From a virus, in IMG/VR virus record IMGVR_UViG_3300034073_005389, positions 248,001 through 312,000 of that record: a stretch of DNA of 64,000 nucleotides, one strand, 5' to 3'. The notes below the pieces were generated by a model. The model searched no databases. It saw only the letters and a program-made list of their open reading frames with translations, and was not told the origin of the DNA. Shown one piece after another: positions 9,295 to 24,129 of the stretch. The first letter of the stretch is position 1; the number at the start of each line of letters is the position of its first letter. Position numbers and translations under genes: made by a program.

Positions 9295-9296
9295 TT

Positions 9297-9398
9297 TCAA
9301 AACCGCCCTTCCAGGTTATCCATAGTGCTCATTTTATTCAGTTCCATGAAGTTTTTCTTGGTTGCAGCAATTTTCTTATTAGATTCTTTTCTATCCAT
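9297..9398 (-). pseudogene. Chimeric remnant of the 8685-8176 gene start
   Basis: A 33-codon frame whose first 12 residues (MDRKESNKKIAA) duplicate the start of the downstream gene; it then diverges to a short unrelated tail and stops at 9297, overlapping the ATG region of cassette gene A. It marks the left edge of the insertion and may act as a translated leader. Confidence 0.6.
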
Positions 9399-9439
9399 AA
9401 ATATTTTTACCTGCACGTTTATTTTGCACTTACAAATAT
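9364..9439. repeat. 76-bp direct repeat, copy 2
   Basis: Second copy of 8651-8726. It overlaps the -10 region of the promoter at 9462-9435, whereas copy 1 has lost the -35 sequence; so this outer copy keeps the original promoter. Confidence 0.9.
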
Positions 9440-9462
9440 AAGGCTTGTCGTAAGCATGTCAA
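9435..9462 (-). promoter_or_regulatory. Promoter for the cassette and 8685-8176 gene
   Basis: TTGACA (9462-9457), 16-bp spacer, TATATT (9440-9435). Before the insertion it would have been directly upstream of the 8685-8176 gene. Confidence 0.65.
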
Positions 9463-9481
9463 GTGACGATAATTTTATAAA

Positions 9482-9709
9482 TTACCACGGGTGAGCGTCT
9501 GTCACGATTCCAGCCATAATGGTAATATTAATTCTAGAGCTAGATTTGTTTGTTTCTAGCATGAATCCTTTACCATCTTTAGCGGAAACTCTACATTCAT
9601 AACCATTACCATGAATAATTTTCTCCGCAATTTCTACTGGCAAACCTCTAACTACCAAAGAAACTTCTACTGTAGTTAGCTTATAAGGAGAGTCTACAGA
9701 AATTTTCAT
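9482..9709 (-). CDS. Hypothetical protein, 75 aa
   Basis: Small basic/beta-rich protein, MKISVDSPYKLTTVEVSLVV onward, with GYECRVSAKDGKGFML in the middle. No family recognised. Overlaps the next gene upstream by 4 bases. Confidence 0.6.
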   Translation of the reverse strand: MKISVDSPYKLTTVEVSLVVRGLPVEIAEKIIHGNGYECRVSAKDGKGFMLETNKSSSRINITIMAGIVTDAHPW

Positions 9710-10227
9710 ACTTCAATTCCAATCTTAAATAAATCTTCTTTGTCAATTTTATAATTATGCTGTGCCCATTTTTGATCTAGATGAGAATCTACCCATTGTT
9801 TGTATGATTTACTATCATACATAACCTGATTTCCAAAAGTAAAACTATCTGACATAAACAATGCTTCAATTAATGACTTTAATTTGTATGCATTAAACTG
9901 AGCGTAGTAATAAACGCCAGGGTAGATATAAATTTTATCTTGATAAAGAAAACATTTTATATTAAAATTACTATGAGTAACTTTCTTTAGCTGCATATCA
10001 AAACCACAAACAGCAGTTCGATATTCAGAAACATCTTCATCATCTGGCGGAATCTTACCTGGATTATAATTTGGATTTGGCACAGATTCCCACCACATAT
10101 ATGGTGATTTGTAATCAAATTGATAATGAGAAAACTCTTTGGAAGCTAGCTCCAATATAGATTGGATTCTCCCTGATAAGTTTTCTCTTACTTGAGGATC
10201 AATACAAATAAGATCAGATATTTTCAT
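9706..10227 (-). CDS. Hypothetical protein, 173 aa
   Basis: Starts MKISDLICIDPQVRENLSGR; aromatic-rich with YKSPYMWWESV near the middle and several tyrosines. No recognised domain. It overlaps the upstream gene by 14 bases. Confidence 0.6.
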   Translation of the reverse strand: MKISDLICIDPQVRENLSGRIQSILELASKEFSHYQFDYKSPYMWWESVPNPNYNPGKIPPDDEDVSEYRTAVCGFDMQLKKVTHSNFNIKCFLYQDKIYIYPGVYYYAQFNAYKLKSLIEALFMSDSFTFGNQVMYDSKSYKQWVDSHLDQKWAQHNYKIDKEDLFKIGIEV

Positions 10228-10432
10228 CTTTAAAACTCACATTAACAGCATCTATCTCTACATTACAGAGAGTAACAAAACAAGTTGCTAATAAAGAATC
10301 GGCTTTGCAAGTCCAAGTTATTTCTTGGACACAAGGAATAACTTCTCCTGTATTTGAATTTATCAGCTTTGTTCCGGTCGTTGTTCCATCACTAATTATT
10401 TTTAATTTATAAGAATTATTATCTGTATTCAT
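10214..10432 (-). CDS. Hypothetical protein, 72 aa
   Basis: Short beta-rich protein (YKLKIISDGTTTGTKLI) with no recognised family. Located 2 bases downstream of its neighbour in the operon. Confidence 0.55.
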   Translation of the reverse strand: MNTDNNSYKLKIISDGTTTGTKLINSNTGEVIPCVQEITWTCKADSLLATCFVTLCNVEIDAVNVSFKDENI

Positions 10433-10434
10433 TT

Positions 10435-10677
10435 TTACTTTTCCTCTAGTTTTTGAATTTTAGATTTCAAGGTAACATTGAAATTAGCAAAATGCTTATC
10501 GCCAGGTTGTACATTGTATTGTGCGCTAGCATCTTCTCCCCAACCATAACCAACTTTAATTGGAACAGTAAGGTTCAAGTTAATTTTAACTGATTCTATT
10601 TTGCCAGTAAATAGAATTCTCATTTGTTTAGCTAAAGAATCTTTGATTTCTTTTGGAAGTTTAGATTTGCTTTTCAT
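10435..10677 (-). CDS. Hypothetical protein, 80 aa
   Basis: Strongly basic start (MKSKSKLPKEIKDSLAKQM) followed by beta-like strands (IESVKINLNLTVPIKVGYGW). Overlaps the upstream coiled-coil gene by 4 bases. Function unknown. Confidence 0.6.
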   Translation of the reverse strand: MKSKSKLPKEIKDSLAKQMRILFTGKIESVKINLNLTVPIKVGYGWGEDASAQYNVQPGDKHFANFNVTLKSKIQKLEEK

Positions 10678-11153
10678 TTCTTTGCCTCATGCATTTGAAC
10701 AAATTTTTTCGCTTCTTCTAGGCGGATTTGAAATTCCTTGACTTCTTCTTGCTTAACCCAAAGCTTCCATTCTTTTACTTCTTGTTTGTAAGCCTTGTAA
10801 TCTTCTTGATATTTAGCAAGAGCTTTTTCGTAAGCTTTAATTTGCTTATTGTAATTTGGATTTTCTTTTTCTTGTTCAACTATTGAATATAGTTCAAGAG
10901 CAAAATCGTCGTCATCACTATATGGCTTTTTGAATTCTAAATGAATAGTTTCAGTCGGAATATTCTCTCTAAGAAGCTCTTTTAAACTAAACATGGCACA
11001 GTCATATAATGTTTTTTCGCCAAGATATTTATAACTAACTCGTTCAGTAATAGTTTTAGGCGGCTCTTTAGGTTTAGTTGGAGCACGAGGTTTGATAATC
11101 CTATCCCAACCTCTTCGCTTCTTTATCTCTGACTTAAGATTTTTTTCGCTCAT
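10674..11153 (-). CDS. Coiled-coil protein, paralogue of 2910-2410
   Basis: The same order of parts as the 2910-2410 gene: a proline/lysine-rich N-terminus (RAPTKPKEPPKT), an acidic patch (PYSDDDDFALELY), then a long charged coiled coil (YNKQIKAYEKALAKYQ). The two are diverged paralogues kept 8 kb apart. Function unknown. Confidence 0.65.
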   Translation of the reverse strand: MSEKNLKSEIKKRRGWDRIIKPRAPTKPKEPPKTITERVSYKYLGEKTLYDCAMFSLKELLRENIPTETIHLEFKKPYSDDDDFALELYSIVEQEKENPNYNKQIKAYEKALAKYQEDYKAYKQEVKEWKLWVKQEEVKEFQIRLEEAKKFVQMHEAKK

Positions 11154-11192
11154 AATATTTCAACTCCATATACAATTTCCACCATTCCGATT

Positions 11193-11492
11193 TTAGCTAT
11201 CTATGTCCCACATAAATCCAATGTTCTTTTCCCATTGCAAAAGAACTTGAGAATAGCTTCTTTTCATTTGCTCTTTCGGAATTTCCCAAATAAGTAGATC
11301 GCCGTTCCAATGGGTATGGCGGATCAGTTTATAACTTTTACCAACATCCAAGTACTTTTGCATTATATTATCTGGAACTTCCAAAGTATTTATTTCGATA
11401 TTATCATCATCGAATGATTTAACTTCCGCTTTAAGCAATTTACATTCAATAATTTTTCCTACGAATAAGTTAGCGCTTTGTTTATCGCTCAT
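11193..11492 (-). CDS. Hypothetical protein, 99 aa
   Basis: Charged, beta-rich protein including KSYKLIRHTHWNGDLLIWEI. No family recognised. Followed upstream by an 80-base gap with a short inverted repeat (GTTGTTAAACAAC). Confidence 0.55.
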   Translation of the reverse strand: MSDKQSANLFVGKIIECKLLKAEVKSFDDDNIEINTLEVPDNIMQKYLDVGKSYKLIRHTHWNGDLLIWEIPKEQMKRSYSQVLLQWEKNIGFMWDIDS

Positions 11493-11573
11493 GTTTCCAA
11501 CTCTCCTTATGACCTAGTTGTTAAACAACCTTCTCAATATCTTTCTTTATGAGCTTTATGGATATTTAATTTT

Positions 11574-11930
11574 TTAAACTTTGTTTCGCTCATAGCAATC
11601 CGCTACTTGTTTTAGTTTTTGAATAACAACTTCCCTTAGATTATGCATCAAAGAATCAAGCCTGTTAATATCGGAAACAAGCTCTCTAATGTCAGAAGCT
11701 TCTAGTCGATCAGAGTTGCAGGCTCGATAATGAGCATCTTCATCTATTCCTTCTTCGATTAAATGCTCAATCAAATCGACAATTATTTGATCTTTGGTTG
11801 GAAGATAAATATCTTGTTCCTCTTCCTTGGCTAAAGGTATTGATGGAGTTTCTTGCATAACATGCCAACCATCTTTTATTAATTGATCGGTGAATTCTTT
11901 TGGAACAACTGGAAATGTTGTATTTTTCAT
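11574..11930 (-). CDS. Hypothetical protein, 118 aa
   Basis: Acidic, helical protein, with the C-terminal half a likely coiled coil (DINRLDSLMHNLREVVIQKL). No family recognised. Confidence 0.6.
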   Translation of the reverse strand: MKNTTFPVVPKEFTDQLIKDGWHVMQETPSIPLAKEEEQDIYLPTKDQIIVDLIEHLIEEGIDEDAHYRACNSDRLEASDIRELVSDINRLDSLMHNLREVVIQKLKQVADCYERNKV

Positions 11931-12157
11931 TTTTTTAAATCTTCTACTGCTAAACGCGCATCCAATAATCCATTAGATTCATTATATAATTGATCTAAAA
12001 CATAAGATGGTATTTTTGATGTGTGCAATTGTATTCCTACTGGAGTATCCATTTCTGTTTCAATTATATAAGAATCAGTTGCTGGATCATAAATAATAAT
12101 TTGATTAGGCAAAATCTGACAAAATGTTTCACCGGAAGAATCTTTTTTAATTTTCAT
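11927..12157 (-). CDS. Small protein with DPATDSYII motif, paralogue of 63838-63644
   Basis: 76 residues: MKIKKDSSGETFCQILPNQI, then IIYDPATDSYII, then a C-terminal helix (SYVLDQLYNES). The gene at 63838-63644 has the same order (MEIRKEINGTTSTRISPNKI, ILRYDPSTDSYNI, EMLKMLYSTAWE), so the two are paralogues 52 kb apart. Function unknown. Confidence 0.65.
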   Translation of the reverse strand: MKIKKDSSGETFCQILPNQIIIYDPATDSYIIETEMDTPVGIQLHTSKIPSYVLDQLYNESNGLLDARLAVEDLKK

Positions 12158-12372
12158 TTTTCAAATTGTTTAGAATTAATAGGGTAAAGATATTTATTGG
12201 TAATCACTGCATAACCACAAGCACATTTCCAAATAGTTCGTTCTGCATCTGTTGGGGTCGCATAATACATACCAACATCACCATGTTTATGTAAATTTAC
12301 TTTTTGATAAAATTCTTCTTCAGAAAGAGCTATGCCAAGCTCGTCTGACTCTACATAATGAATAGTTTTCAT
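12154..12372 (-). CDS. Hypothetical protein, 72 aa
   Basis: Small protein with a CACGY motif near residue 50 (TIWKCACGYAVITN), possibly part of a zinc site with one pair of cysteines. Overlaps the next gene by 4 bases. Confidence 0.55.
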   Translation of the reverse strand: MKTIHYVESDELGIALSEEEFYQKVNLHKHGDVGMYYATPTDAERTIWKCACGYAVITNKYLYPINSKQFEK

Positions 12373-12388
12373 AAGTATTTTACTCTAA

Positions 12389-12628
12389 TCAAAAGTCATC
12401 AAAAGTCAATAACAAATGAGGGTTCTCATTGTATGGATCGTTCATGTATGATAATTCTACATACACTTTTGTCAAGTCCTTACCTTCTACCATTTTTAAT
12501 AGTCTGGCTAAAGAAATTTTATTTTCATACCATCCAAAATCTTTAAAAATAGTAGATCCATCAGCAGTCTTTGATTTAATCTCTTTTGATTCAACTGGTT
12601 GTTGTAATGTCTTTTTTGGTCGTGGCAT
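12389..12628 (-). CDS. Hypothetical protein, 79 aa
   Basis: Starts MPRPKKTLQQPVESKEIKSK, a basic N-terminus, then a mixed region with VYVELSYMNDPYNENPH. No family recognised. Lies directly downstream of an inverted repeat and of the GC-rich DCC gene. Confidence 0.55.
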   Translation of the reverse strand: MPRPKKTLQQPVESKEIKSKTADGSTIFKDFGWYENKISLARLLKMVEGKDLTKVYVELSYMNDPYNENPHLLLTFDDF

Positions 12629-12639
12629 AATAATCTTTC

Positions 12640-12667
12640 CAACTATCCTGAAAAACTGGATAGTTCA
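12640..12667 (-). terminator. Hairpin, possible terminator after the DCC gene
   Basis: AACTATCC / GGATAGTT form an 8-bp stem with a short T-rich loop. It lies just downstream of the DCC gene. No strong T run follows, so it is only a probable terminator. Confidence 0.4.
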
Positions 12668-12678
12668 AATATGAAATT

Positions 12679-13086
12679 TCAATGAAGCTCACAGCTGTCT
12701 TTTGAACAGCGCCCTGTGATCCGCAACCTATTGCGAGCAAACCAACGATAAGCTGCATCGAGCATGTGCCTTATTCCAGGCAATCGTGTCAGTGTAACGA
12801 GCGGAGAGAATCCTACGGCACTGTATAACCGTCTGAATACTTCGACACCTTCTACCCATTCTCCAGGACCCTCTGCACCAATTTCACGTCCCTGAATGCG
12901 TGCCATTAGATCATCAAACGTCTTTCCAACAGATGCTGGATCAAAAGATTGATCAGCAATATCGGTAAAGCGTACTCGACCCTTTCTATCTAACCATCTA
13001 AGCAGACGGATTTCACGAACGCACAAAGGGCAATCGCCATCGAAGAACACCTCAAAGCATGGACTTAAAACACGAACATTTGTCAT
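12679..13086 (-). CDS. DCC-family thiol-disulfide protein (DUF393), GC-rich
   Basis: 135 residues with FFDGDCPLCVREIRLLRWLD near residue 13, the DxxCxxC motif of the DUF393/DCC family, predicted thioredoxin-like oxidoreductases of unknown substrate. It ends in a RxxITGRCSKDSCELH tail with further cysteines. Base composition is near 50% GC by eye against about 30% in neighbours, and codon use looks bacterial, so it is probably a recent acquisition from a bacterial chromosome. Confidence 0.85.
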   Translation of the reverse strand: MTNVRVLSPCFEVFFDGDCPLCVREIRLLRWLDRKGRVRFTDIADQSFDPASVGKTFDDLMARIQGREIGAEGPGEWVEGVEVFRRLYSAVGFSPLVTLTRLPGIRHMLDAAYRWFARNRLRITGRCSKDSCELH

Positions 13087-13088
13087 AT

Positions 13089-13385
13089 CTATTCCTTAAT
13101 ATCTTTCTCATCTTCTAAATTATTTAGATAAAATGGTAATGCTCCTTCCGGCATCTTTTGAATTGGAAAAGACGATTTCATCAAATGCATGGAAGTAGAT
13201 TCTGTATGACCGCATGATTTACATCGAAAAATACCAGCATAAACTCTTAAAGAGATTCCACGGCTCATTTCTAGATTCTCTGCATCACATTTAGTACATT
13301 TGCCAGCAACTTCTTCAAATTTTGCCCCGCCAAGCAAACTCATCATGCCCAAACTATTGTCACTAATTATTTTTTTTAAAATCAT
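13089..13385 (-). CDS. Two-cysteine-pair zinc-ribbon protein, 98 aa
   Basis: Contains CTKCDAEN near residue 31 and FRCKSCGHTE near residue 54, two CxxC pairs of a zinc ribbon, with an upstream and downstream loop. Small zinc ribbons of this kind are common in phage accessory regions; partner unknown. It ends 2 bases from the DCC gene start. Confidence 0.65.
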   Translation of the reverse strand: MILKKIISDNSLGMMSLLGGAKFEEVAGKCTKCDAENLEMSRGISLRVYAGIFRCKSCGHTESTSMHLMKSSFPIQKMPEGALPFYLNNLEDEKDIKE

Positions 13386-13401
13386 GGCTCATATAAATCT
13401 C

Positions 13402-13716
13402 TCAATTGAAAATTTGAAGCATTTTCATTTTTTCTATAATCTGTAAATAATTATCTCTATCTACAAAATAAGAATAATTTATTCTGCTTACATCATAAGT
13501 TTTCTTGCCAGGAGTCATATCCACAACCAATGTTTCTTTATCAGTAATAGTAAATTTATAATCCAATATTTTAAAAGAAGCTAAAAATGTATCATTATGA
13601 AACTTAATGATCCCATAATCATATATGCAACCACATTTATAATAACCCGTTTTAAACTCAATTAAAAATTGATTAGAACAAAATGGACATTGATAACCAT
13701 ACTCTGAAACAGACAT
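13402..13716 (-). CDS. Zinc-ribbon hypothetical protein, 104 aa
   Basis: The N-terminus has YQCPFCSNQF followed 17 residues later by YYKCGCIYD, the four cysteines of a zinc ribbon. The rest is beta-rich (TFLASFKILDYKFTITDKET). No specific family recognised. Confidence 0.65.
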   Translation of the reverse strand: MSVSEYGYQCPFCSNQFLIEFKTGYYKCGCIYDYGIIKFHNDTFLASFKILDYKFTITDKETLVVDMTPGKKTYDVSRINYSYFVDRDNYLQIIEKMKMLQIFN

Positions 13717-13755
13717 ATTATAAATATTCTACTGATAAATCTATCAATCCATAAT

Positions 13756-14109
13756 TCAAGCTTTTTGCTTTGCCTTATCATAATCCGCACTATACCACAA
13801 TGCCATTGCCTCTGGTGTCTTAAATTTTTCCCATTTGCCGGTCTCTGGATTAAAAGCACCTGTCCTGCTACTAATTTCTTTTAGTGTTTCTTCCATAGCG
13901 ACATTAGGATCATACCCACGAATCTTCATAGCATTAACAGCAAATACAATGATATCACACAATGCGTCAATCTCTCCACTACCATCCTTGGCTCGCAAAA
14001 ACTCACTTAATTCTTCTGCTAAGAAACTAGCATGAGCAGTCTTATCCCACTCAATGTTCAATAATCCTCGCTCTTTTGCCCAAGCATTAATACGATCAAA
14101 ATGTGTCAT
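13756..14109 (-). CDS. MazG-like nucleotide pyrophosphohydrolase
   Basis: 117 residues of an all-alpha NTP-pyrophosphatase type fold: ASFLAEELSEFLRA followed by EIDALCDIIVFAVNAM gives the EExxE...ExxD pattern used to bind magnesium in MazG and related dNTP pyrophosphohydrolases. Phages use these to clear aberrant or signalling nucleotides such as (p)ppGpp or dUTP; substrate here is unknown. Less AT-rich than its neighbours. Confidence 0.75.
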   Translation of the reverse strand: MTHFDRINAWAKERGLLNIEWDKTAHASFLAEELSEFLRAKDGSGEIDALCDIIVFAVNAMKIRGYDPNVAMEETLKEISSRTGAFNPETGKWEKFKTPEAMALWYSADYDKAKQKA

Positions 14110-14124
14110 GTTTTATTTCCTTTT

Positions 14125-14601
14125 TTAATACAAATATAAAGTTGTAATAAGATTACTAATTTTTTCTTCTGAAATATTATTTTCTTCACCAAACTTTTTA
14201 ATTTTAGTGATGAAATCATTAATATCATCATCAGTATAAATACGATTGTGAATCGTAAGATAACCAGCATCTAATGCTGGCGAATATGATTCTGGTCCAA
14301 ATTTAAAAACATCATATAATGTATAACGATAAGAACCTTTATCTATTATCTCAGATTGATAAATTCTTCTACATACAGCACAAAATACATCCAGTTGCTG
14401 CTCTTTGGTTAAAGAATTCCAAAATTCTTCAGATTTACTTTCTAAAATATCGCTTGTAGAGTCTTCCATAAATTCTTCAGCACCTTCTTGATAGTCTAGT
14501 GACTTATAACAATACATACAGTAAAAATCACAAAATTCAAAATTATCTTCTGTATAATGGTGTTTGTGATCAGGACTATCTGAACAAAAAGAATTACTCA
14601 T
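14125..14601 (-). CDS. Hypothetical protein with N-terminal cysteine/histidine cluster
   Basis: ATG at 14601 is preferred over GTG at 14610. The first 40 residues contain FCSDSPDHKHHY and FYCMYCYKSL, a possible zinc site; the remainder is acidic and helical. Expressed from the promoter at 14670-14643, one of the best in the window. No family recognised. Confidence 0.6.
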   Translation of the reverse strand: MSNSFCSDSPDHKHHYTEDNFEFCDFYCMYCYKSLDYQEGAEEFMEDSTSDILESKSEEFWNSLTKEQQLDVFCAVCRRIYQSEIIDKGSYRYTLYDVFKFGPESYSPALDAGYLTIHNRIYTDDDINDFITKIKKFGEENNISEEKISNLITTLYLY

Positions 14602-14642
14602 ATTTTTCACACTTATGAGGTGTCAAAATTTACTCTGGTAAG

Positions 14643-14670
14643 AGTATAATTTTATAAATTACCCTGTCAA
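14643..14670 (-). promoter_or_regulatory. Consensus-like promoter
   Basis: TTGACA (14670-14665), 16-bp spacer containing AATTTATAAAAT, TATACT (14648-14643). Reads into the 14601-14125 gene and then the zinc-ribbon/MazG operon. Confidence 0.75.
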
Positions 14671-14680
14671 GAGGGTCCTA

Positions 14681-15097
14681 TTATTTTAAATTAAACAATA
14701 TTAACCCTATTAACATAATAAAAGAGGCTATAATTTTGTTAGTACTAAATTGCTCTTGCAAAAACATGACAGAAAACAAAGTAGTAATAACTGGATTAAT
14801 AGAAATCATTAATGTCAAAGCGCTCGTATCATTGCTGGATTTTAACAATATTCCAAACATGACTGCGCCAACAACATGAGTAGCAATGCAAACAATACCC
14901 CAAAATACTCCTGACAAATTATAATTAGAAATTTGACTTTTAGAAAGCAAATATAACCAAATAGGTATCTCTAACGCATAAACTGCTCCTGCCACTATCT
15001 GTAATTGATATGGATGGATTCTGTCTACTGCTAACTTCCTAAAAAGTGAAGATAGTCCAAAAGCTAATATAGTTAAAAAAATAAGTAAATATTTCAT
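14681..15097 (-). CDS. EamA/DMT-type small membrane transporter
   Basis: 138 residues with four or five hydrophobic membrane segments and EamA-like sequence (FGLSSLFRKLAVDRIHPYQL; ALTLMISINPVITTLFSVMF; the FLQEQFS turn). This is one half of a usual ten-helix drug/metabolite exporter, so it may pair with itself, as in small multidrug-resistance type proteins. In a phage it may export a metabolite or alter host resistance; no substrate evidence. It follows the PrkA module in the same direction. Confidence 0.75.
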   Translation of the reverse strand: MKYLLIFLTILAFGLSSLFRKLAVDRIHPYQLQIVAGAVYALEIPIWLYLLSKSQISNYNLSGVFWGIVCIATHVVGAVMFGILLKSSNDTSALTLMISINPVITTLFSVMFLQEQFSTNKIIASFIMLIGLILFNLK

Positions 15098-15111
15098 AAT
15101 CTTCCTAAGAA

Positions 15112-15141
15112 AAAATGAAGAGGGTAACTAATACCCTCCTC
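15112..15141 (-). terminator. Intrinsic terminator after prkA
   Basis: GAGGGTA / TACCCTC stem with a 5-base loop followed on the minus strand by TTCATTTTTTC. Ends the YeaH-SpoVR-PrkA operon. Confidence 0.7.
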
Positions 15142-15163
15142 ATATACATAATGTAAATATTTA

Positions 15164-17095
15164 TCAACTATCTCGCCACAAATTAGCCGCTGCAAAAGCT
15201 AAAATCTCTTCTGCCGAATCTGGATTATATCCAATATTCATTAACTGCTCTGTCATATCTGAGTATTTCTTCTGCTGCTCAGAATCTCTTGTCTTGCTCT
15301 TTGTCACAATTCTAGCAATTGACTTAATGCCAGTAATTAAATATGACTCAATAGCAGACTTCAAAGGCTCATAACTAGTATACTTAATTGTATCTCCTCG
15401 TCTCATTCTAGAGAACATATAGGCAGTTACATCACTTCTAAAGCCATCTTTAGAAGAACCAGTGATACCAATCTGCTCCTCAATAGACTTCATAAAAGCT
15501 TCATCTGGAGTACGCTCTTCTTTTGTTACTCTGTCTTTTAATTTAACACGAGTTACATATGCCTCTGCATGATCCATGTAATTCTCAAAGATAGATTGAG
15601 CCTGCTCCTCATAAGCTGTAATAAATGCCTTGGCAATTTCACTTTCTAGTATCTTTAGATACTCTTCACGAATTGTCTTTTGTAGTAACTCTAAACAATG
15701 TGCTTTAAATTGCTCATCAGTAATCTGCTCTTTTACCATTCTGGTTAAAGAATTAATTACTGAAACAGGAGTAATCATATTCTTTTCTGAATTAGTTAAC
15801 GCATGATCTAATGATTTAGTGATAAATCTAGTAGAAATACCATCTAAACCCTCATGCTTAGCTTCTTCTCGTAAATCCTTAATATCTACCTTCTTAACTC
15901 TGCCCTTTTCAATGATTTCTTCACCATTGTAAATCTTCATCTTAGTCAATAAATCACATTTGCCAGATGTCTTTAATCTGCTCATTACAGAGAACATAGA
16001 AGCAACCTTCAAAGTATGAGGTGCGATATGTGCAGTAAAGTCTGATTTACCTAACATCTTTTCGTAAATCTTAATTTCTTGATCTAACTCAAGACAATAA
16101 GGAACAGCTACTTTTACAATACGGTCTAAAATAGCCTCATTAGTATGTTCAGACTGGAATCTATTCCATTCTGCTTCATTACAGTGAGCTAAAATAACTC
16201 CATCAAAATGAAGCATGTCTGATTTGCCAGGAGAAGGAACTCGTTTTTCTTGAGTAGCAGTAATAATAGTATGTAAGAATTCAATTTCATTCTTAAATAC
16301 TTCTACTAATTCTACGATACCACGATTGCCTACGTTGAAAGCGCCGGTTAAGGATAATGCTCGTGGATCATCTTCTGAGTATTTATCTAGTTTAGAAATA
16401 TCTACCGAGCCAATTAGCACAGAAACATCTTGTGAGTTAGCATCCATAGGGGGAACTGCTGCTACGCCACGTCTAGCCCTTTGAGAGAATGATGTTTCTT
16501 CTACTTCAAAGTTTTCATACTTACCGTCTAATTCATTCATGAGCTTATGACGGGCTACAGGAGAAATATCACCTTCAATTTTAACATTAAGTGTTTTCTC
16601 AAATGAGTCTCTTAAAGATCGAGGAATGAGTTGTAGTGGTTCGCCACGGTGAGGATCGCCCTTTAGGTGGTAGTATTTCTTACCTTCTAGCGCCTTTTTA
16701 ATATGTTCGGTGAGGGCTGACTTGCCTGCGCCTACTGGACCCATTAATAACAATACCTGGCGGGATTCTTCGCCACGCTGAGCGGCAGATGAAAGGAAAG
16801 ACATTACTTTGTTAATAACGTTTTCCATACCAAAGAATTCGTTTTCAAAATATTTATAGAGTTTTACATTTTCTCCATCAAATATTTTATGCTTACGGAT
16901 ATCGGAATCTGGCATAGTTTCTACGCCACGTTCTACAATAGCTTCGTATAATCTTTTATGTGATGATTTAACAATAGATGGATCTTGCTCGACTAAATCA
17001 ATGTAATCCATCAAGTTGCCAGAAAATTTCTTATTTTGACTGGCAGATTCTCTTGCCGATTGAATTTGTTTTAATAGTTGTTCTTTGGTACTCAT
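15164..17095 (-). CDS. prkA: PrkA-type serine protein kinase / AAA protein
   Basis: 643 residues, full length for the family. The N-terminal AAA part has Walker A GPVGAGKS at residues 119-126 and later the CNEAEWNRF region typical of PrkA/YeaG. The C-terminal half carries the remaining conserved PrkA domain. PrkA is a stress-linked protein with an AAA core reported variously as kinase or protease-like; in bacteria it is induced by nutrient limitation and acts with YeaH and SpoVR. Here it is the last gene of a minus-strand set YeaH, SpoVR, a 65-aa gene, PrkA, followed by a terminator. A phage copy of the whole set is unusual. Confidence 0.93.
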   Translation of the reverse strand: MSTKEQLLKQIQSARESASQNKKFSGNLMDYIDLVEQDPSIVKSSHKRLYEAIVERGVETMPDSDIRKHKIFDGENVKLYKYFENEFFGMENVINKVMSFLSSAAQRGEESRQVLLLMGPVGAGKSALTEHIKKALEGKKYYHLKGDPHRGEPLQLIPRSLRDSFEKTLNVKIEGDISPVARHKLMNELDGKYENFEVEETSFSQRARRGVAAVPPMDANSQDVSVLIGSVDISKLDKYSEDDPRALSLTGAFNVGNRGIVELVEVFKNEIEFLHTIITATQEKRVPSPGKSDMLHFDGVILAHCNEAEWNRFQSEHTNEAILDRIVKVAVPYCLELDQEIKIYEKMLGKSDFTAHIAPHTLKVASMFSVMSRLKTSGKCDLLTKMKIYNGEEIIEKGRVKKVDIKDLREEAKHEGLDGISTRFITKSLDHALTNSEKNMITPVSVINSLTRMVKEQITDEQFKAHCLELLQKTIREEYLKILESEIAKAFITAYEEQAQSIFENYMDHAEAYVTRVKLKDRVTKEERTPDEAFMKSIEEQIGITGSSKDGFRSDVTAYMFSRMRRGDTIKYTSYEPLKSAIESYLITGIKSIARIVTKSKTRDSEQQKKYSDMTEQLMNIGYNPDSAEEILAFAAANLWRDS

Positions 17096-17115
17096 CTACT
17101 CTTTCCTTGTTAGAA

Positions 17116-17313
17116 TTACACTCTTCTAAAGCTTCCTTTAAACTTAGCCGGGGTTTCTTGCTCTTCTTGTTCTTCTAATTGTTTATTACTAATCACATCT
17201 TGTAAATATAAGACAATTTCTTTTGCTTTATCTTCTTCAGAAACAGGTTGTCTTAAAATAGACAAAATTGTATGATAATAATTATTTTTATCTATAATAT
17301 TTATTTTAGTCAA
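17116..17313 (-). CDS. Small charged protein between spoVR and prkA, 65 aa
   Basis: Helical, acidic protein (MTKINIIDKNNYYHTIL) with a glutamate/glutamine-rich segment. It overlaps the end of the SpoVR gene by 8 bases and precedes PrkA, so it is part of this module; no known counterpart in the bacterial version comes to mind. Confidence 0.6.
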   Translation of the reverse strand: MTKINIIDKNNYYHTILSILRQPVSEEDKAKEIVLYLQDVISNKQLEEQEEQETPAKFKGSFRRV

Positions 17314-18631
17314 TGGATGTTACCTCATCATTTACTCTAGCCAATAATCTAACAGAGTTTCCCCACAAAGTTTTAATATGATGTACTACTGTAGTGGCAT
17401 ATGTTACTTCTAAATCTCTTCCATCATGTTCATGATATAAAACTAATTCGTTATTTCTTCTAACTTCTTCTACATAAACTACTGGAATAGAACCACCGCC
17501 AACTGATTTGGCTAATTCATTTTTAACAACTTCCCAACCATCCTCATCAGATATATCCTCGACAACTAATCCATTACCTCTTTTTTTGACGTAAGTAAAC
17601 AAATTTAATTCAGCACATAGTTCTGCGTCAAGATATTGTCTAATAAATGATGCATCATGGCATGCTTCTCTAGCAATCAGACATTCTTCCCAACCATATT
17701 TTTTCTCTATATGACGATATAAATGAAAACCTAAATGATATGGATTGATAGATCCAATATGCGGTCTAATAACTTGATTATGAGACTTAATAATAGGAAG
17801 ATGATATTCTGAAGGTAAATCTAAATCATGACAGATTTTATAATGCATTGCGCAAGAAAATCCTTCATTTGAGACTTTAGTTTGAATTTGTGGCCAGAAA
17901 TATTGACCTTCATCTCTAATAATATCAATGATATCTTTTTTCCAGCTAGGTAATTTAGCGTTCTCAGAAATAAAACCTAACAAATCATAATCTGGCTCTA
18001 AAGGAATTTTTTCTAATTCTCTATTTATTCTAAGCTGACGATTTGTATCATTTCTTTCTTTGGCTTCTTTTAATTCTTGAAGTTTTTCTTCTTTAATTTC
18101 TTCTTGAGTTCTACGACGTAAACCATATTTAGTAGTCTGAAATTGAACGGCATGACATGCATCAATTACTTTTTCTACTTCTTCGATTCCAATATTAGTA
18201 TCTTCTACATAAGATTGAATCCTCTTTTTAGCTGCACGGAATCTTTGAATAACTGTTTCAGGTCTAGTATCTTTAAACATTCTGTTATTTTTAAAAAAAT
18301 CAGAATGCCCAACGCAATGAGCCATAATAAGAATCTGTAAATATAATGGATTCTCTCTCATTAAATATGCAATTGACGGATGGCTATTGATGATAAGTTC
18401 GTAAGGTAAACCTTCCATACCAAGATTATACATCTGGTGTGTTCGCTCAAAAGCTTTGCCAAGAGACCAATGATTATACATAGACGGCATGCCATGATGA
18501 GCCATAGCCCCTATCATTTCATAATAATCTATTGTCTCATACTCGATAGGATAAGGGTCCAATTTGTACTTAGGATATATTTCATTAATTTTCTCATCCC
18601 ATTTTTCTAGATCTGATAATGTATAATCCAT
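17306..18631 (-). CDS. spoVR: SpoVR/YcgB family protein
   Basis: 441 residues. Begins with the family's acidic helical region, then AHHGMPSMYNHWSLGKAFERT (a hallmark of SpoVR), AHCVGHSDFFKNN and the later HLGFHLYRHIEKKYGWEECL. SpoVR proteins are conserved in bacteria and named from a sporulation phenotype in Bacillus; their molecular role is unsettled, and they typically lie with YeaH and PrkA. Slightly shorter than the usual ~500 residues but with all the main motifs. Confidence 0.93.
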   Translation of the reverse strand: MDYTLSDLEKWDEKINEIYPKYKLDPYPIEYETIDYYEMIGAMAHHGMPSMYNHWSLGKAFERTHQMYNLGMEGLPYELIINSHPSIAYLMRENPLYLQILIMAHCVGHSDFFKNNRMFKDTRPETVIQRFRAAKKRIQSYVEDTNIGIEEVEKVIDACHAVQFQTTKYGLRRRTQEEIKEEKLQELKEAKERNDTNRQLRINRELEKIPLEPDYDLLGFISENAKLPSWKKDIIDIIRDEGQYFWPQIQTKVSNEGFSCAMHYKICHDLDLPSEYHLPIIKSHNQVIRPHIGSINPYHLGFHLYRHIEKKYGWEECLIAREACHDASFIRQYLDAELCAELNLFTYVKKRGNGLVVEDISDEDGWEVVKNELAKSVGGGSIPVVYVEEVRRNNELVLYHEHDGRDLEVTYATTVVHHIKTLWGNSVRLLARVNDEVTSID

Positions 18632-18633
18632 AC

Positions 18634-19812
18634 TTACACCTCGGAGCTAACTCCATTTAATATATTCTTAAAAGCAACCCAAACATCTTCTTTTCTTAAG
18701 ATATAAGCTGTATGCAATTTTTTATCTCTTAAGGGTTGCAAAACATCATACAGTGTAGCGGGTTGCTCATAAGCACTGCTAGTAACATCTTTATCTGGAT
18801 TAATTTCGCAATATCCAAACAATTGACATACTTCTTTTAATTCAGATACTTTATCGGCAAATATTTTATTATCAAAACCAAAGTTATCTCCATCGCTACA
18901 TTGAAAAATATAAATATTCCAAGCAGAAGGATGATATCTTTTATCAATAATTTCTTCCACTAATTTAACACCAGAAGAAGCTACTGTTCCACCGTATGTA
19001 CTTTGAGTAAAGAAGTCTTTTTCGTTTACTTCTCTTGCCTCTGCATCATGGGTAACGAAAACAATATCTAATGTTTCGTATTTGCTACGAAGAAACTGAT
19101 ACATCAAAAAGCAAAAGCTTCTAGCTAAGAACTTTTTGTCAGTGCTCATGGAGCCAGAAACATCCATTAAGAAAAAGACAACAGCATTAGTAGAAGGTTC
19201 CTCTTTCTTTTTATAATGCCTGAATTTTAAATCATCTTCATGGAATGGAAAAGTTTCGCCTTCTTCGGCAGTTTCTGGATCGAAACCAGAAGCTTTCATT
19301 CTTTTAATTCTAGCAATAGCAGATTTTTTCTTATCTAATCTAGGAATAATGCCTTCAGAACGATAACCACTACGCTTTAGCTTTTCTTGAGAAATATTGG
19401 ATAGTTGTTTTCGTTGCAACTCTGGAAGATTTAAGTCCTCAAATAAATATTGGGATAATTCATCTAGTGAAATTTCTACTTCGTAAAATTCTTCACCTTT
19501 TTCATTTCCGGCTTTATTACCAGGGGCAGGTTGATCATCATCTGATTGCCCGATTTTTTGACCTTTTTGAAGATCTTTGCCAGGAGCAGACCCTACTTGT
19601 TTAGAAGAGTTAGCACCATAGACAAACTTATATTCTTTAATACCTCTGACAGGTATTTTGAATTTCTTTTTTCCGTTTTCACCAATGATAGATTCTTCAG
19701 CTACAATGTTATGAATTCCGTCTTTAATAGCCTTTTCTATCTTCTGTTTATGACGCCTTCTATCAGAAGCGGAGCGATCTGCTGTGGTTTTATGTTCTCG
19801 GAAAATAGACAT
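18634..19812 (-). CDS. yeaH: YeaH/UPF0229 von Willebrand-type protein
   Basis: 392 residues from ATG 19812 (MSIFREHKTTADRSASDRRRHK), which aligns with the start of YeaH; the ATG at 19839 would add nine residues. The C-terminal half has the MIDAS-like FFLMDVSGSMS of a von Willebrand A domain, followed by the YeaH-specific TQSTYGGTVASSG region. The N-terminal part contains the basic and KxxRSGYRSEG motifs of the UPF0229 family. First of the three-gene stress module; partner of PrkA. Confidence 0.93.
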   Translation of the reverse strand: MSIFREHKTTADRSASDRRRHKQKIEKAIKDGIHNIVAEESIIGENGKKKFKIPVRGIKEYKFVYGANSSKQVGSAPGKDLQKGQKIGQSDDDQPAPGNKAGNEKGEEFYEVEISLDELSQYLFEDLNLPELQRKQLSNISQEKLKRSGYRSEGIIPRLDKKKSAIARIKRMKASGFDPETAEEGETFPFHEDDLKFRHYKKKEEPSTNAVVFFLMDVSGSMSTDKKFLARSFCFLMYQFLRSKYETLDIVFVTHDAEAREVNEKDFFTQSTYGGTVASSGVKLVEEIIDKRYHPSAWNIYIFQCSDGDNFGFDNKIFADKVSELKEVCQLFGYCEINPDKDVTSSAYEQPATLYDVLQPLRDKKLHTAYILRKEDVWVAFKNILNGVSSEV

Positions 19813-19918
19813 TTTTAAAAAATACCTGGTTATTAGCATTAATATGCTTTTAATTTTAATTATCGCACGATATCGGCGTATAATGATATATTATATATCA
19901 AAGAAAAGAGAAATTAAA

Positions 19919-20074
19919 ATGAAAAACAAATCTATCTTAATAAGACTTTCAGATGATGAAATGAAAGAAATAAATGATTTATTTAAAAAAGAAATAGTCA
20001 ATAATGATTTAATTAGCAGGAGTGAATTTGTAAGAAGACTAATTAAATTGGGCATGGTGCAATATGAAAAATAA
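19919..20074 (+). CDS. Ribbon-helix-helix DNA-binding protein
   Basis: 51 residues from ATG 19919 with an AGAGAAA ribosome-binding site; the longer frame to 19784 has no support. MKNKSILIRLSDDEMKEINDLF and ISRSEFVRRLIKLGM fit a CopG/MetJ-like ribbon-helix-helix fold, which binds DNA as a dimer. Upstream are a TATAAT hexamer (19879-19884) and two palindromes (CGATATCG; GATATATTATATATC) that could be its own operators. Overlaps the start of the next gene by 11 bases, so probably regulates that endonuclease. Confidence 0.75.
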   Translation: MKNKSILIRLSDDEMKEINDLFKKEIVNNDLISRSEFVRRLIKLGMVQYEK

Positions 20075-21554
20075 ATATGACACTAATTCCTTCATAAGGG
20101 TTGCGGCTGAAATTCATAAAAATAAATATGATTATTCTAAATCAGAATATACTACTATTTCTAATAAAATCACTATTATTTGCCCTAATCATGGAGAATT
20201 TAAACAAGAGGCAAAGTACCATTTAAAGGGTGGTGGATGCTATCAGTGCGCTAAAGAGTCTCGTAAAACCCCAAAAACAAGTATTGAAACTTTCATTGAA
20301 AAAGCAAGAAAAATATTTGGTAATAATTATTGTTATGATGAAGTTAATTATATTAATACTCTTACTAAAGTAAAAATAATTTGTAAAGAACACGGCTCTT
20401 TTGAACAAAAGCCAGTAAGTCATCTATCTGGAAGTGGATGCAGACTATGTTTTCATAACAGAAAAACATCGTCTAACGATCAATTCATAGATAAAGCAAT
20501 CAAAATTCATGGAAATAAATATAGTTATTTGCTATCTGAATATAAAAACAATAAATCAAATATAAAGATATTATGCCCTATTCATGGAGAGTTTGTACAA
20601 CAAGCCGCAGCTCATTTAAGAGGAGCTAATTGTCCAAGTTGCTCAAGGAAAACAGAAAAAATAGCAGGAGAATTTTTTAATAAAGTTAATCAGCTATATA
20701 AAAATAAATATGATTACTCATTATCAAAATATAAAAATAATAGGGAAAAAATAATTATTATTTGCCCAATTCATGGACAATTTACTCGTCAACCATGTAA
20801 ACATCTGGTAGGATACGGATGTTCCAGGTGTGGAAAATATGCAAAATTATCAAATAATTATTTTATTGAAAGAGCAGTTGAGCTACATGGCGATAAGTAT
20901 GATTACTCAAATATTAATATTACTAGTAATAAATCAATTGCGAGAATTATTTGCAAAATTCATGGCGAATTTAATCAGGAAGCAGGAAGCCACTTAAAAG
21001 GCAGCGGCTGTTCTGGATGTAGTGGTACTAAAAAATTAGACACCAATATTTTCATTAAAAGATCTAAAAAGATTCATGGAGATAAATATGATTATTCTTT
21101 ATCTAAATATGTTGGAATCAATAAAAAAGTTAAAATTATTTGTAAAGAACATGGAGAATTTTTACAAATAGCAAATAATCATATGCTTGGTGGAGGGTGT
21201 CCTAAATGTGGAGTAAGCTGCTCTAAAGATGAAATATCATGGATTAAATCATTTAATAATTTAAATATTATTTCTGGATACGACAAATTAATTATTAATA
21301 ATAAAAAATTAAAACCTGACGGATTTGATCCAACCACCAACACTGTTTATGAGTTTTATGGAGATTATTGGCATGGTAATCCAAAAAAATTTAAATCAGA
21401 AGATATCAACCCTTCTAATAATATTAGTTTTGGAGAACTTTATAAAAAAACTATAAAAAGAGCTAATATGATAAAAATGGCTGGTTACAATCTTGTTTCA
21501 ATTTGGGAATACGATTATAGAAAATCTCTATGTAAAACCAAAGATATTAAATAA
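20064..21554 (+). CDS. Homing endonuclease with six zinc modules (DUF723-like) and Vsr-type nuclease
   Basis: 496 residues. Six repeats of about 59 residues fill positions 8-380, each with KYDYS, IICxxHGEF and a GxGCxxC finger, the pattern of DUF723 modules that read DNA. The end (SGYDKLIINNKKLKPDGF then VYEFYGDYWHGNPKKF) is a Vsr-like restriction-fold nuclease. Such proteins are homing endonucleases of large phages and giant viruses. It stands on the plus strand in a minus-strand region, as expected for an inserted selfish gene, and is preceded by an overlapping ribbon-helix-helix gene. Confidence 0.88.
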   Translation: MKNKYDTNSFIRVAAEIHKNKYDYSKSEYTTISNKITIICPNHGEFKQEAKYHLKGGGCYQCAKESRKTPKTSIETFIEKARKIFGNNYCYDEVNYINTLTKVKIICKEHGSFEQKPVSHLSGSGCRLCFHNRKTSSNDQFIDKAIKIHGNKYSYLLSEYKNNKSNIKILCPIHGEFVQQAAAHLRGANCPSCSRKTEKIAGEFFNKVNQLYKNKYDYSLSKYKNNREKIIIICPIHGQFTRQPCKHLVGYGCSRCGKYAKLSNNYFIERAVELHGDKYDYSNINITSNKSIARIICKIHGEFNQEAGSHLKGSGCSGCSGTKKLDTNIFIKRSKKIHGDKYDYSLSKYVGINKKVKIICKEHGEFLQIANNHMLGGGCPKCGVSCSKDEISWIKSFNNLNIISGYDKLIINNKKLKPDGFDPTTNTVYEFYGDYWHGNPKKFKSEDINPSNNISFGELYKKTIKRANMIKMAGYNLVSIWEYDYRKSLCKTKDIK

Positions 21555-21585
21555 TTTTAATTATATATCCAAAAGATATTATTAA

Positions 21586-21885
21586 TTATTGTAAGATATA
21601 CAATTTATAATTCTGCTTTTCTACTCTGTCAAGAACAGATTGTAAGTTTTTAATTGCAGAAGCTAATGTTTTTCCTTTCCCTTCCACTATATTAGAATCA
21701 ATGTCAGGGAAAGGATTAGCTAAATAAGTAACATACTCAGAATTATTTTCCTGGGTTAAAGGAAAAACATACCAATTTTTTTGATATTCATAATATTCAA
21801 TGCTAACTATCACCCAATTCATTGGGTGATAAGTCATTTTCTTAATTTTATTTTGAATATTTATTACTTGTTTAGAGACTTTCAT
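21586..21885 (-). CDS. Hypothetical protein downstream of aceA, 99 aa
   Basis: Begins [17 protein letters not shown], beta-rich in the middle (WVIVSIEYYEYQKNWYVF), with a helical end. It starts TAATG-overlapping the stop of the isocitrate lyase, so it is co-transcribed with it. No family recognised. Confidence 0.6.
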   Translation of the reverse strand: MKVSKQVINIQNKIKKMTYHPMNWVIVSIEYYEYQKNWYVFPLTQENNSEYVTYLANPFPDIDSNIVEGKGKTLASAIKNLQSVLDRVEKQNYKLYILQ

Positions 21886-23123
21886 TAGAATTGCTCTTGT
21901 TCAGTAGAGCCATGCAAGGCTAATGTAGACGATTTACCAGCAGCAATAACTTGAGATACTGCATCAAAATAACCTGTACCTACTTCTCGCTGGTGTTTAG
22001 TAGCCGTATATCCAACAGCCTCAGCATTAAATTCTGCTTGCTGCAACTCTGAATAAGCAGCCATTCCTCTATCACGGTATTGATTCGCCAATTGATACAT
22101 AGAGTGATTCAATGAATGGAATCCTGCCAAAGTTACAAACTGGAATTTATAACCCATAGCGCCTAATTCACGCTGAAATTTAGCGATAGTTGCATCATCT
22201 AAATTCTTCTTCCAATTAAAAGAAGGAGAGCAATTATAAGCTAGCAACTTTCCAGGAAATTTGGAATGTACAGCTTCTGCAAAAAGTCTAGCCTGTTCTA
22301 GATCTGGTGTAGAAGTCTCCATCCAAATCAAATCAGCATAAGGAGCATAAGCCAATGCCCTAGCTACAGAACGTTCTAGACCTGTACGGCATAAATAGTA
22401 AAAACCTTCAGGGGTTCGACCTTTATTTGCATCAATATAATGCTTATCATAGGGATCAACATCACTAGTGATAAGATTAGCAGAGTCTGCGTCAGTGCGA
22501 GCAATAATAAGAGTAGGAACTCCCATTACATCTGCTGCAAGTCTAGCGGCATTTAAAGTACGAATGAATTGAGAAGTAGGTACTAGAACTTTACCTCCCA
22601 TATGACCACATTTCTTTTCAGAAGCTAATTGATCTTCAAAATGAATACCAGAAGCACCGGCTTCAATCATAGCTTTAGTTAGTTCAAACACATTAAGAGG
22701 TCCACCAAAACCAGCTTCGGCATCAGCTACGATAGGAGCATACCAATCTGTTTTATTTTTACCTTCTGCGGTTTCAATTTGATCGGCTCGTTGTAGTGCG
22801 TTATTGATACGCTTTACAACGGCAGGAACGCTATTAGCTGGGTATAGGCTTTGGTCTGGATACATTTCTCCAGCTAGATTGGCATCAGCGGCAACCTGCC
22901 AACCAGAAAGATAAATAGCTTTTAATCCGGCTTTGACTTGTTGCATGGCTTGATTGCCAGTAAGAGCACCTAAAGCGGCAACATAAGGTTCTTCATGAAG
23001 AAGCTTCCAAAGCTTGTTAGCGCCATCGGTGGCTAATGTGTAAGCAATTTGTTTTGAGCCTCTGAGGCGCACAACATCTTGATATGTATAATTACGAACA
23101 ATTCCTGCAAATCTTTCTTTCAT
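21885..23123 (-). CDS. aceA: Isocitrate lyase
   Basis: 412 residues, close to the usual ~430 of bacterial isocitrate lyase, which cleaves isocitrate to glyoxylate and succinate in the glyoxylate shunt. The signature KKCGHMGGK holds the catalytic cysteine at residue 172. Also visible are [11 protein letters not shown] (131-141), the RTDAD magnesium-site motif (210-214) and NCSPSFNW (297-304), all core residues of the family. Base composition is richer in GC than the flanking genes. The gene is intact and coupled TAATG to the downstream gene, so it belongs to this genome. It allows growth on acetate or fatty-acid breakdown products; a phage copy could feed gluconeogenesis in a starved host. Confidence 0.95.
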
Positions 23124-23135
23124 AAAATCTCCAAT

Positions 23136-23759
23136 TTATTTAAAAACTAATTTTATTTGTTTTTTATTAACTATCTTAATAAATTCTTCTTGAGAAGAAG
23201 CTTTAATTTCTTGATTAAAGTAATAAAATTTTTTAATTTTAATAGAACCATCTTCTAAATATTCGATATGTGCGGCATCATCTTCTCGGTGAAGCAATTC
23301 GTGACTATACCATTGCTCTTCCATTCTTAAGCCATTTGAATAATATTTAATATATGCTGGTCCATTTTCTCTATGATAACACCTTGAATGAGGAGGGCTT
23401 GTGCCTGATTTCCAATATTCTTCATATTTAGTACCATCATCATTATAATAAGTAGTGACCGCCCCGCCATCTTTTCTATAATATTTGTTATGTTGCCACC
23501 ACTCTTCTATTTTAATATTTTTGTTTTCAGAATATTGTATTTTAGCTGGACCATCTTCACGATGAAGTTGACCATTTATATAATAACCTTCATATTCAAG
23601 ATCACCATTATCAAAATATGATATATGTGCAGGTCCATCTTCCCGGTGGAGTCGGCATTTATTATACCAAAACTCATCTATTTTATTTAGAAATTTAAAA
23701 TAAATTTCTTTTTTAAGATTATTGGGAGAGTAATAAATAATCTTATTAGTCTTAGACAT
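23136..23759 (-). CDS. HREDGPA-repeat (MORN-like) protein
   Basis: 207 residues with five repeats of about 28 residues, each with (L)HREDGPAxIxYxxxG and an aromatic-rich WY turn. This MORN-like repeat occurs in phage, giant-virus and bacterial proteins of unknown function and probably folds as a beta-solenoid-like surface. Lies next to the isocitrate lyase; possibly structural or effector-like, but no evidence. Confidence 0.8.
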   Translation of the reverse strand: MSKTNKIIYYSPNNLKKEIYFKFLNKIDEFWYNKCRLHREDGPAHISYFDNGDLEYEGYYINGQLHREDGPAKIQYSENKNIKIEEWWQHNKYYRKDGGAVTTYYNDDGTKYEEYWKSGTSPPHSRCYHRENGPAYIKYYSNGLRMEEQWYSHELLHREDDAAHIEYLEDGSIKIKKFYYFNQEIKASSQEEFIKIVNKKQIKLVFK

Positions 23760-23820
23760 AAGAAAAATTTATATAAATCTTTATTTAAGATAATTCAGGC
23801 AAGAATATTTAAATATAAAA

Positions 23821-24069
23821 TTATTTATTAATATCTTGTTTAATTTTATTTAAAATATCTTGCAAAGTAGGTTTTAATAACGACAAAACAGTATCAATAT
23901 CTATTTTATCTAAATCTTCAGCTTCTGGTTTTTCAGAGCAGATATAACTAGAATTAAAATCAGAAATATAACTTTCTGGCGCTTTAGAAAAAGAATTTTT
24001 GTTAACTAATTCTAGCATCATTTGTTTAAATAATGATGCGACCCATTCTTCATTGTTAGTATTTGTCAT
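23821..24069 (-). CDS. Hypothetical protein, 82 aa
   Basis: ATG at 24069 (MTNTNNEEWVASLFKQMM) rather than a TTG at 24093. Helical, acidic; no family recognised. A weak TTGACT (24104-24099) lies just upstream and may be its promoter. Confidence 0.55.
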   Translation of the reverse strand: MTNTNNEEWVASLFKQMMLELVNKNSFSKAPESYISDFNSSYICSEKPEAEDLDKIDIDTVLSLLKPTLQDILNKIKQDINK

Positions 24070-24129
24070 GAGTGAAAAATATGTCTTATGCAAATATAAG
24101 TCAAGTAAGAGTTCTATTATAATAAATTA

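What the first reader, a model, noticed from the sequence alone, without database searches (positions are those of the whole stretch)
15164..19812. Complete YeaH-SpoVR-PrkA stress module in phage DNA
Three bacterial stationary-phase or starvation proteins appear together, in one operon with a new small gene between SpoVR and PrkA and a terminator at the end. The set is a widely conserved bacterial partnership; its presence in a phage suggests control of host dormancy or nutrient-stress physiology.
Basis: partly seen in the sequence, partly recalled or inferred. Interest (0 to 1): 0.75.

Follow-up and report, generated by a model that had tools for sequence, protein, structure and literature searches.

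The report
Phage-borne bacterial stress-protein trio
A giant bacterial virus carries an intact three-gene bacterial starvation-response machine (YeaH, SpoVR and PrkA), and relatives of this trio turn up in many other large phages, which suggests that phages repeatedly capture it, swap it among themselves and keep it working.

Summary
On the minus strand, YeaH/DUF444 (18634-19812), SpoVR (17306-18631) and PrkA (15164-17095) are intact, tightly packed genes ending at a terminator, in a 361-kb phage record. They are not host remnants or assembly debris: 97 of 102 fetched IMG/VR contigs carry all three in the same order, the phage copies form one clade in all three protein trees, and they are under strong purifying selection. 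Large phages acquired the trio at least four times independently. The window phage's terminase relatives lack it. It sits in a ~28-kb accessory stretch, and close copies occur in a phage lineage with a different capsid/terminase core, so the unit moved between phages. The 'new small gene' occurs in only one other contig and is not part of the conserved module. Bacterial YeaG/YeaH act as a starvation 'metabolic brake'; the biochemical mechanism is unknown. My best reading is an AAA+/VWA remodelling machine with SpoVR as effector or client, tuning host physiology or proteostasis during infection (inference). The trio was already annotated, without comment as a set, in Thermus phage phiYS40, and partly in Ralstonia phage RsoM2USA. 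New are its breadth, monophyly, reordering and inter-phage mobility.

The parts
18634..19812 (-). YeaH / DUF444 protein (392 aa), von Willebrand A domain with complete MIDAS motif
   Evidence: Pfam DUF444 3.6e-106; MIDAS residues D217, S219, S221, T276, D307 invariant in 61 sequences; VWA fold match incl. NorD VWA 9qh6 E 2e-5
17306..18631 (-). SpoVR / YcgB family protein (441 aa)
   Evidence: Pfam SpoVR 8.6e-115; AF2 model pLDDT 92.9, pTM 0.90; invariant H104, H108, E77, E255, H262 among others
17116..17313 (-). 65-aa ORF (TTG start) between SpoVR and PrkA; lineage-specific, probably coding, not part of the conserved module
   Evidence: No Pfam hit; homologue only in L010; dN 0.22 / dS 0.54
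15164..17095 (-). PrkA / YeaG (643 aa), AAA+ ATPase domain plus PrkA C-terminal domain
   Evidence: Pfam AAA_PrkA 1.5e-138 and PrkA 1.1e-77; Walker A K125 and K427 (= E. coli K116, K426) kept; family profile matches solved 9xip at 1e-182
15115..15143 (-). Intrinsic terminator after PrkA
   Evidence: 12-bp stem, 5-nt loop, T tract; -18.4 kcal/mol
1..24100 (.). Part inside the window of a ~28-kb accessory stretch (record 244.4-272.1 kb) that contains the trio and is replaced by 3.7 kb in the terminase relative G002
   Evidence: Synteny of G000 with G002

Best explanation
This is a functional, phage-adapted copy of the bacterial YeaG-YeaH-YcgB(SpoVR) starvation module. An ancestor of a gp23-type jumbo-phage lineage probably captured the trio from a cell; it now has the order YeaH-SpoVR-PrkA, has been kept under purifying selection, and has passed as a unit into the window phage's lineage. 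Most likely mechanism (inferred): PrkA forms an ATP-driven AAA+ ring, YeaH docks on it through its VWA/MIDAS domain as adaptor, and together they remodel or activate SpoVR and/or host proteins, as other AAA+/VWA pairs (NorQ-NorD and kin) remodel their clients. In bacteria the outcome is a brake on anabolic metabolism. In the infected cell it would hold the host in a quiet, viable, resource-sparing state, or support proteostasis, during the infection cycle. Shown: presence, intactness, monophyly, selection, mobility, conserved motifs. Inferred: complex formation, client, effect on the host.
For: Intact operon with terminator. Full trio in fixed order in 97 of 102 contigs, the other five lacking YeaH or SpoVR in the fetched stretch. 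One phage clade per protein, SH-aLRT 100/99/96. dN/dS 0.042-0.143. Walker A and MIDAS residues kept. Against G009, the trio are the three best-matching genes (81/61/65%) while DnaE is 27% and the terminase is unmatched; against G002, DnaE is 71% and the terminase 70%, and PrkA is absent. Independent captures in Thermus phages and in two types of ~600-kb phages. E. coli: yeaG and yeaH act together as a metabolic brake (PMC10954441). Mutations selected in E. coli map to conserved residues of the phage copies: YcgB H127Y to H108 (invariant, 64/64), YeaG E414K to E415 (identical in all five sequences aligned) (PMC10044975).
Against: No expression, interaction or phenotype data for any phage copy. 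The biochemical activity of PrkA itself is disputed: weak kinase, weak protease, or neither (PMC13001217, PMC6299236). The function of SpoVR is unknown and its predicted fold has no solved relative. Neighbours differ between lineages. Relatives without the trio exist, so it is accessory in the window's lineage.
Confidence: 0.5

Rival explanations
1. Proteostasis/assembly machine: the trio works with phage chaperones (GroEL-like) and ClpP on phage proteins, e.g. to fold, remodel or degrade proteins during assembly, and has little to do with host starvation.
For: A GroEL-family gene lies within 2.5 kb downstream of PrkA in 51 of 70 loci with enough flank, and ClpP lies near the trio in 17 of 80. 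In Thermus phages the trio adjoins portal, minor head and TerL genes. AAA+/VWA pairs are remodellers.
Against: The window phage has no Cpn60 and its trio is in an accessory stretch away from the structural genes. Thermus neighbours are different genes. Bacterial phenotypes concern starvation and stress.
Confidence: 0.25
2. Counter-defence: the trio inactivates a host defence or stress-triggered shutdown system.
For: It is in a variable accessory stretch, moves between phages and is acquired repeatedly, as anti-defence genes often are. A yeaG E414K sweep arose in one T7-resistant E. coli population (PMC10044975).
Against: No defence-gene neighbours were recognised. Cellular homologues are stress genes. 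The yeaG sweep is one population with several co-occurring mutations.
Confidence: 0.12
3. Passive bacterial cargo or assembly artefact: host DNA caught in a phage contig.
For: Enterobacter phage LAU1 in the collection looks like this: yeaGH at the first base of the record, close to E. coli.
Against: 97 of 102 contigs with conserved order, a separate clade at most 54% identical to any cellular PrkA found, purifying selection, phage genes on the same contigs.
Confidence: 0.02

Closest known systems
Bacterial YeaG-YeaH-YcgB (PrkA-DUF444-SpoVR) stress module
   Same: All three families, one operon, Walker A and MIDAS residues kept
   Different: Gene order YeaH-SpoVR-PrkA instead of the usual PrkA-YeaH-SpoVR; nearest cellular PrkA only 53-54%; carried by phages
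Thermus phages phiYS40, phiLo, Lalka8 (YS40_056-059 and equivalents)
   Same: YeaH-SpoVR-PrkA in the same order in a phage; annotated in phiYS40 as 'conserved bacterial protein', 'SpoVR', 'serine kinase'
   Different: Very divergent, outside the jumbo clade in all three trees, beside TerL (and portal in Lalka8); a 616-aa unknown gene between SpoVR and PrkA in phiYS40
Ralstonia jumbo phage RsoM2USA (ORF28 SpoVR, ORF30 PrkA; PMC8504454)
   Same: SpoVR and PrkA almost adjacent in a jumbo phage
   Different: Host-like copy (SpoVR 56% to Vibrio); apparent order PrkA-?-SpoVR; middle gene not identified in the passages read; no match to it in the searched phage collection
AAA+/VWA pairs such as NorQ-NorD
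   Same: AAA+ ATPase plus VWA/MIDAS partner in one operon; YeaH VWA matches the NorD VWA fold
   Different: PrkA is its own AAA family with a C-terminal domain; no MoxR-family Pfam hit

Membership tests
PrkA / YeaG family | AAA_PrkA domain plus PrkA C-terminal domain over full length | tested here: met
   1.5e-138 and 1.1e-77
PrkA / YeaG family | Walker A lysine and C-terminal-lobe lysine (E. coli K116, K426) needed in vivo | tested here: met
   K125, K427. E. coli R232 is S234 here, but also S or A in the bacterial homologues aligned
PrkA / YeaG family | ATPase, kinase or protease activity | not testable with these tools
   Disputed even in bacteria (PMC13001217, PMC6299236)
DUF444 / YeaH family | DUF444 domain with VWA MIDAS (DxSxS, T, D) | tested here: met
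   3.6e-106; D217, S219, S221, T276, D307 invariant
SpoVR family | SpoVR domain and its invariant residues | tested here: met
   8.6e-115; all aligned phage and bacterial sequences share H104, H108, E77, N254, E255, H262
Bacterial PrkA-YeaH-SpoVR module | Three genes co-linear in one operon | tested here: met
Bacterial PrkA-YeaH-SpoVR module | Usual bacterial order PrkA-YeaH-SpoVR | tested here: not met
   YeaH-SpoVR-PrkA; among the cellular loci fetched only three Bacillota MAGs share it
Bacterial PrkA-YeaH-SpoVR module | Induction in starvation and metabolic braking | not testable with these tools
   No expression data for the phage
MoxR AAA+ / VWA chaperones (NorQ-NorD type) | MoxR-type AAA domain | tested here: not met
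   Only AAA_PrkA, PrkA and AAA_16 at E<=0.001
MoxR AAA+ / VWA chaperones (NorQ-NorD type) | Physical AAA+ ring-VWA contact | not testable with these tools
   Complex prediction not available

The most novel reading that the evidence does not exclude
The trio is a dedicated phage device: an AAA+/VWA remodelling machine with SpoVR as a metal-dependent effector, which many unrelated large phages capture and exchange to impose or exploit a quiescent host state. This would make phages the easiest place to learn what SpoVR and PrkA do biochemically.
Probability: 0.3. Interest if true: 0.85.

Novelty: new variant of a known kind. Interest (0 to 1): 0.6.

Why it matters
PrkA, YeaH and SpoVR are widely conserved bacterial stress proteins, yet their joint mechanism is unknown. 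Finding them as a compact operon that unrelated large phages have repeatedly captured, and exchanged intact among themselves, says that the three form one functional unit and that having it benefits a virus. It gives diverse natural versions for structural and biochemical work, and a testable link between phage infection and starved hosts, the normal state of bacteria in nature.

Tried and rejected
Host remnant or artefact: rejected by the 97/102 count, the trees and dN/dS. Small ORF as fourth component: rejected; two of 98 complete trios have room for it. Enterobacter phage LAU1 as an independent phage capture: rejected; it looks like host flank at the end of the record. L107 (a 'Methylococcaceae' MAG with 72% PrkA) as cellular donor: rejected; it falls inside the phage clade and shares gene order with phage G012. 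Complete glyoxylate shunt beside the trio: rejected; isocitrate lyase is present but no malate synthase in the record. ICL and the trio as one unit: rejected; of 80 ICL loci only L295, the same contig as L010, holds the trio within its flank. GroEL partner in the window phage: none found. SpoVR as zincin protease: only weak, non-significant leads to IrrE/SprT; the HxxxH motif lacks the catalytic Glu and becomes HxxxxH in E. coli-type sequences; left as a lead. Prevalence of the trio among gp23-type relatives: not resolved; 13 MCP-bearing fragments of 62-176 kb had none, but fragments need not span the locus. RsoM2USA gave no hit in the phage collection, so its middle gene was not checked.

Full report
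WHAT IS THERE. On the minus strand of the window lie, in transcription order, YeaH/DUF444 (18634-19812), SpoVR (17306-18631), a 65-aa ORF with a TTG start (17116-17313) and PrkA (15164-17095), followed by a 12-bp stem and T tract at 15143-15115. Pfam confirms each gene, with E-values between 1e-77 and 1e-138 for the main domains. Spacing is tight: 2 bp from YeaH to SpoVR, and the SpoVR stop overlaps the next start. The window is 248001-312000 of a 361,490-bp virus record whose other genes include a GpA-type terminase, a tail sheath and a DnaE-type polymerase (the polymerase by its sequence).

NOT A REMNANT. PrkA alone matched 192 stretches in IMG/VR and 523 with a profile. Of 102 fetched phage contigs, 97 hold YeaH-SpoVR-PrkA on one strand in that order; the other five lack YeaH or SpoVR in the fetched stretch, mostly because the contig ends. 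Median gaps are -4 bp and 21 bp. dN/dS between the window and its nearest copies is 0.042-0.143; for more distant copies dS is saturated. Functional residues are kept: Walker A lysine and C-terminal-lobe lysine in PrkA, all five MIDAS residues in YeaH, and the invariant His/Glu set in SpoVR. The 65-aa ORF is in only one other contig (63% identical; dN 0.22, dS 0.54) and is a lineage-specific addition.

ORIGIN AND MOVEMENT. In trees of PrkA, SpoVR and YeaH the jumbo-phage sequences form one clade (SH-aLRT 100, 99, 96). The nearest cellular PrkAs (53-54%) are three proteobacterial MAG loci with chromosomal neighbours and the usual bacterial order PrkA-YeaH-SpoVR; then identity drops to 38% or less. 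One apparent cellular member, L107, is most likely a phage contig binned into a MAG. Two uncultured phages of about 635 kb (LR745206, LR756504) carry a proteobacterial-type trio; a 595-kb phage (LR756511) carries a Planctomycete/Oligoflexia-type trio; Thermus phages (phiYS40, phiLo, Lalka8) carry a fourth, very divergent trio. The deep placement of the Thermus sequences is unsure (long branches), but they lie outside the jumbo clade in all three trees. Ralstonia phage RsoM2USA reports SpoVR and PrkA as ORF28 and ORF30 (PMC8504454), probably a fifth case.

The window phage's lineage received the trio from another phage lineage. Its terminase relatives (eight records of 53-435 kb) have no PrkA, and 13 trio-bearing records have no match to its terminase (such a negative is only as good as the search's sensitivity). 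Gene-content comparison makes the case. With G009 (298 kb; gp23-type capsid and phrog_2 terminase) the three best-scoring genes are exactly the trio (PrkA 81%, YeaH 65%, SpoVR 61%), while DnaE is 27% identical. With G002, a true relative (144 shared genes, terminase 70%, DnaE 71%), the trio is absent. G009 and G012, which share a core, differ more in PrkA (69%) than G009 and the window do (81%). In synteny with G002 the trio lies in a stretch of about 28 kb (record 244.4-272.1 kb) where G002 has 3.7 kb. So the trio travels between phages as a unit.

HOW IT MAY WORK. Established from bacteria: yeaG and yeaH are induced in starvation and stress, cooperate, and 'quiesce metabolism'; mutants lose long-term viability but regrow faster, and YeaG overexpression lengthens lag (PMC10954441, PMC4664914, PMC6299236). 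The enzymatic nature of PrkA is disputed: B. anthracis PrkA oligomerises with ATP but showed negligible protease and kinase activity (PMC13001217). In E. coli evolved under excess iron, YeaG E555* and YcgB H127Y rose to high frequency in separate populations, and one T7-resistant population fixed YeaG E414K (PMC10044975). I mapped H127 to H108 of the phage SpoVR, invariant in 64 of 64 sequences, and E414 to E415 of phage PrkA, identical in the five PrkA sequences aligned. This suggests that YeaG and YcgB matter in one pathway and that the phage copies keep the critical positions; it is circumstantial.

From the anatomy, PrkA is an AAA+ ATPase and YeaH a VWA protein with a complete MIDAS, whose fold matches many VWA domains, among them NorD of the NorQ-NorD AAA+/VWA complex. 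The simplest mechanism is an AAA+ ring that uses YeaH as adaptor to remodel a client. SpoVR, whose predicted structure is confident (pLDDT 92.9) but matches no solved structure, is the client or effector. One relative, L013, has an intein (Intein_splicing 3.6e-10, LAGLIDADG 3e-17) inserted inside the conserved NEGWA|S motif of SpoVR. Inteins favour active-site motifs of needed proteins (general knowledge), so this points to N254-H262 as a functional site. In the main phage lineage the trio is often followed by a GroEL-family gene (51 of 70 loci with flank) and sometimes lies near ClpP (17 of 80), which favours a role in protein remodelling. I give the host-physiology reading about one half, assembly/proteostasis a quarter, and counter-defence about a tenth.

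NOVELTY. The families and their partnership are known, and phiYS40 has the three annotated genes in GenBank without comment as a set. I found no paper describing the trio as a recurrent phage module in the held library; papers outside it could exist. New here are the breadth, the monophyletic phage clade with its own gene order, at least four independent captures, and evidence of transfer between phages with unrelated cores. I file it as a new variant of a known kind, interest 0.6.

Noticed in passing
window 21885-23123 (-): Isocitrate lyase (Pfam ICL 1.6e-102), 90% identical in the contig that also has L010's trio; 102 IMG/VR stretches encode a relative, but no malate synthase is in this record.
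   Followed up: partly
L013:3255-5813: SpoVR interrupted in frame by an intein with LAGLIDADG domain, exactly in the conserved NEGWA|S motif.
   Followed up: yes
L091:14305-17076 (-), record 34305-37076: Tubulin/FtsZ-like protein that appears to contain an intein (long insert with HINT-like ends), seen when matching neighbour family 24.
   Followed up: no
record 232828-235639 (L101:12828-15639, -): A second AAA+/VWA pair (AAA ATPase plus DUF2201 VWA protein), conserved in the trio-less relative G002 at 77% and 65%.
   Followed up: no
record 229318-230457 (L101:9318-10457, -): Adenylosuccinate synthetase (6.5e-103); could be a PurZ-type enzyme for 2-aminoadenine DNA, not tested.
   Followed up: no
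record 197430-198608 (L099:17430-18608, -): Two adjacent ClpP-like genes, the second apparently without the usual catalytic Ser motif.
   Followed up: no
window 46100-47650 and 48604-49224 (-): Lysyl-type class II tRNA synthetase (6e-79) and a TilS-like tRNA-lysidine synthetase, besides three tRNA genes.
   Followed up: no
L107 (NHDW01000006.1): Contig assigned to a Methylococcaceae MAG that carries a phage-clade trio and phage gene order; likely a mis-binned phage contig.
   Followed up: partly
L110, L111, L114: Three Bacillota MAGs with the phage-like gene order YeaH-SpoVR-PrkA; in the trees they are not sister to the phage clade.
   Followed up: partly
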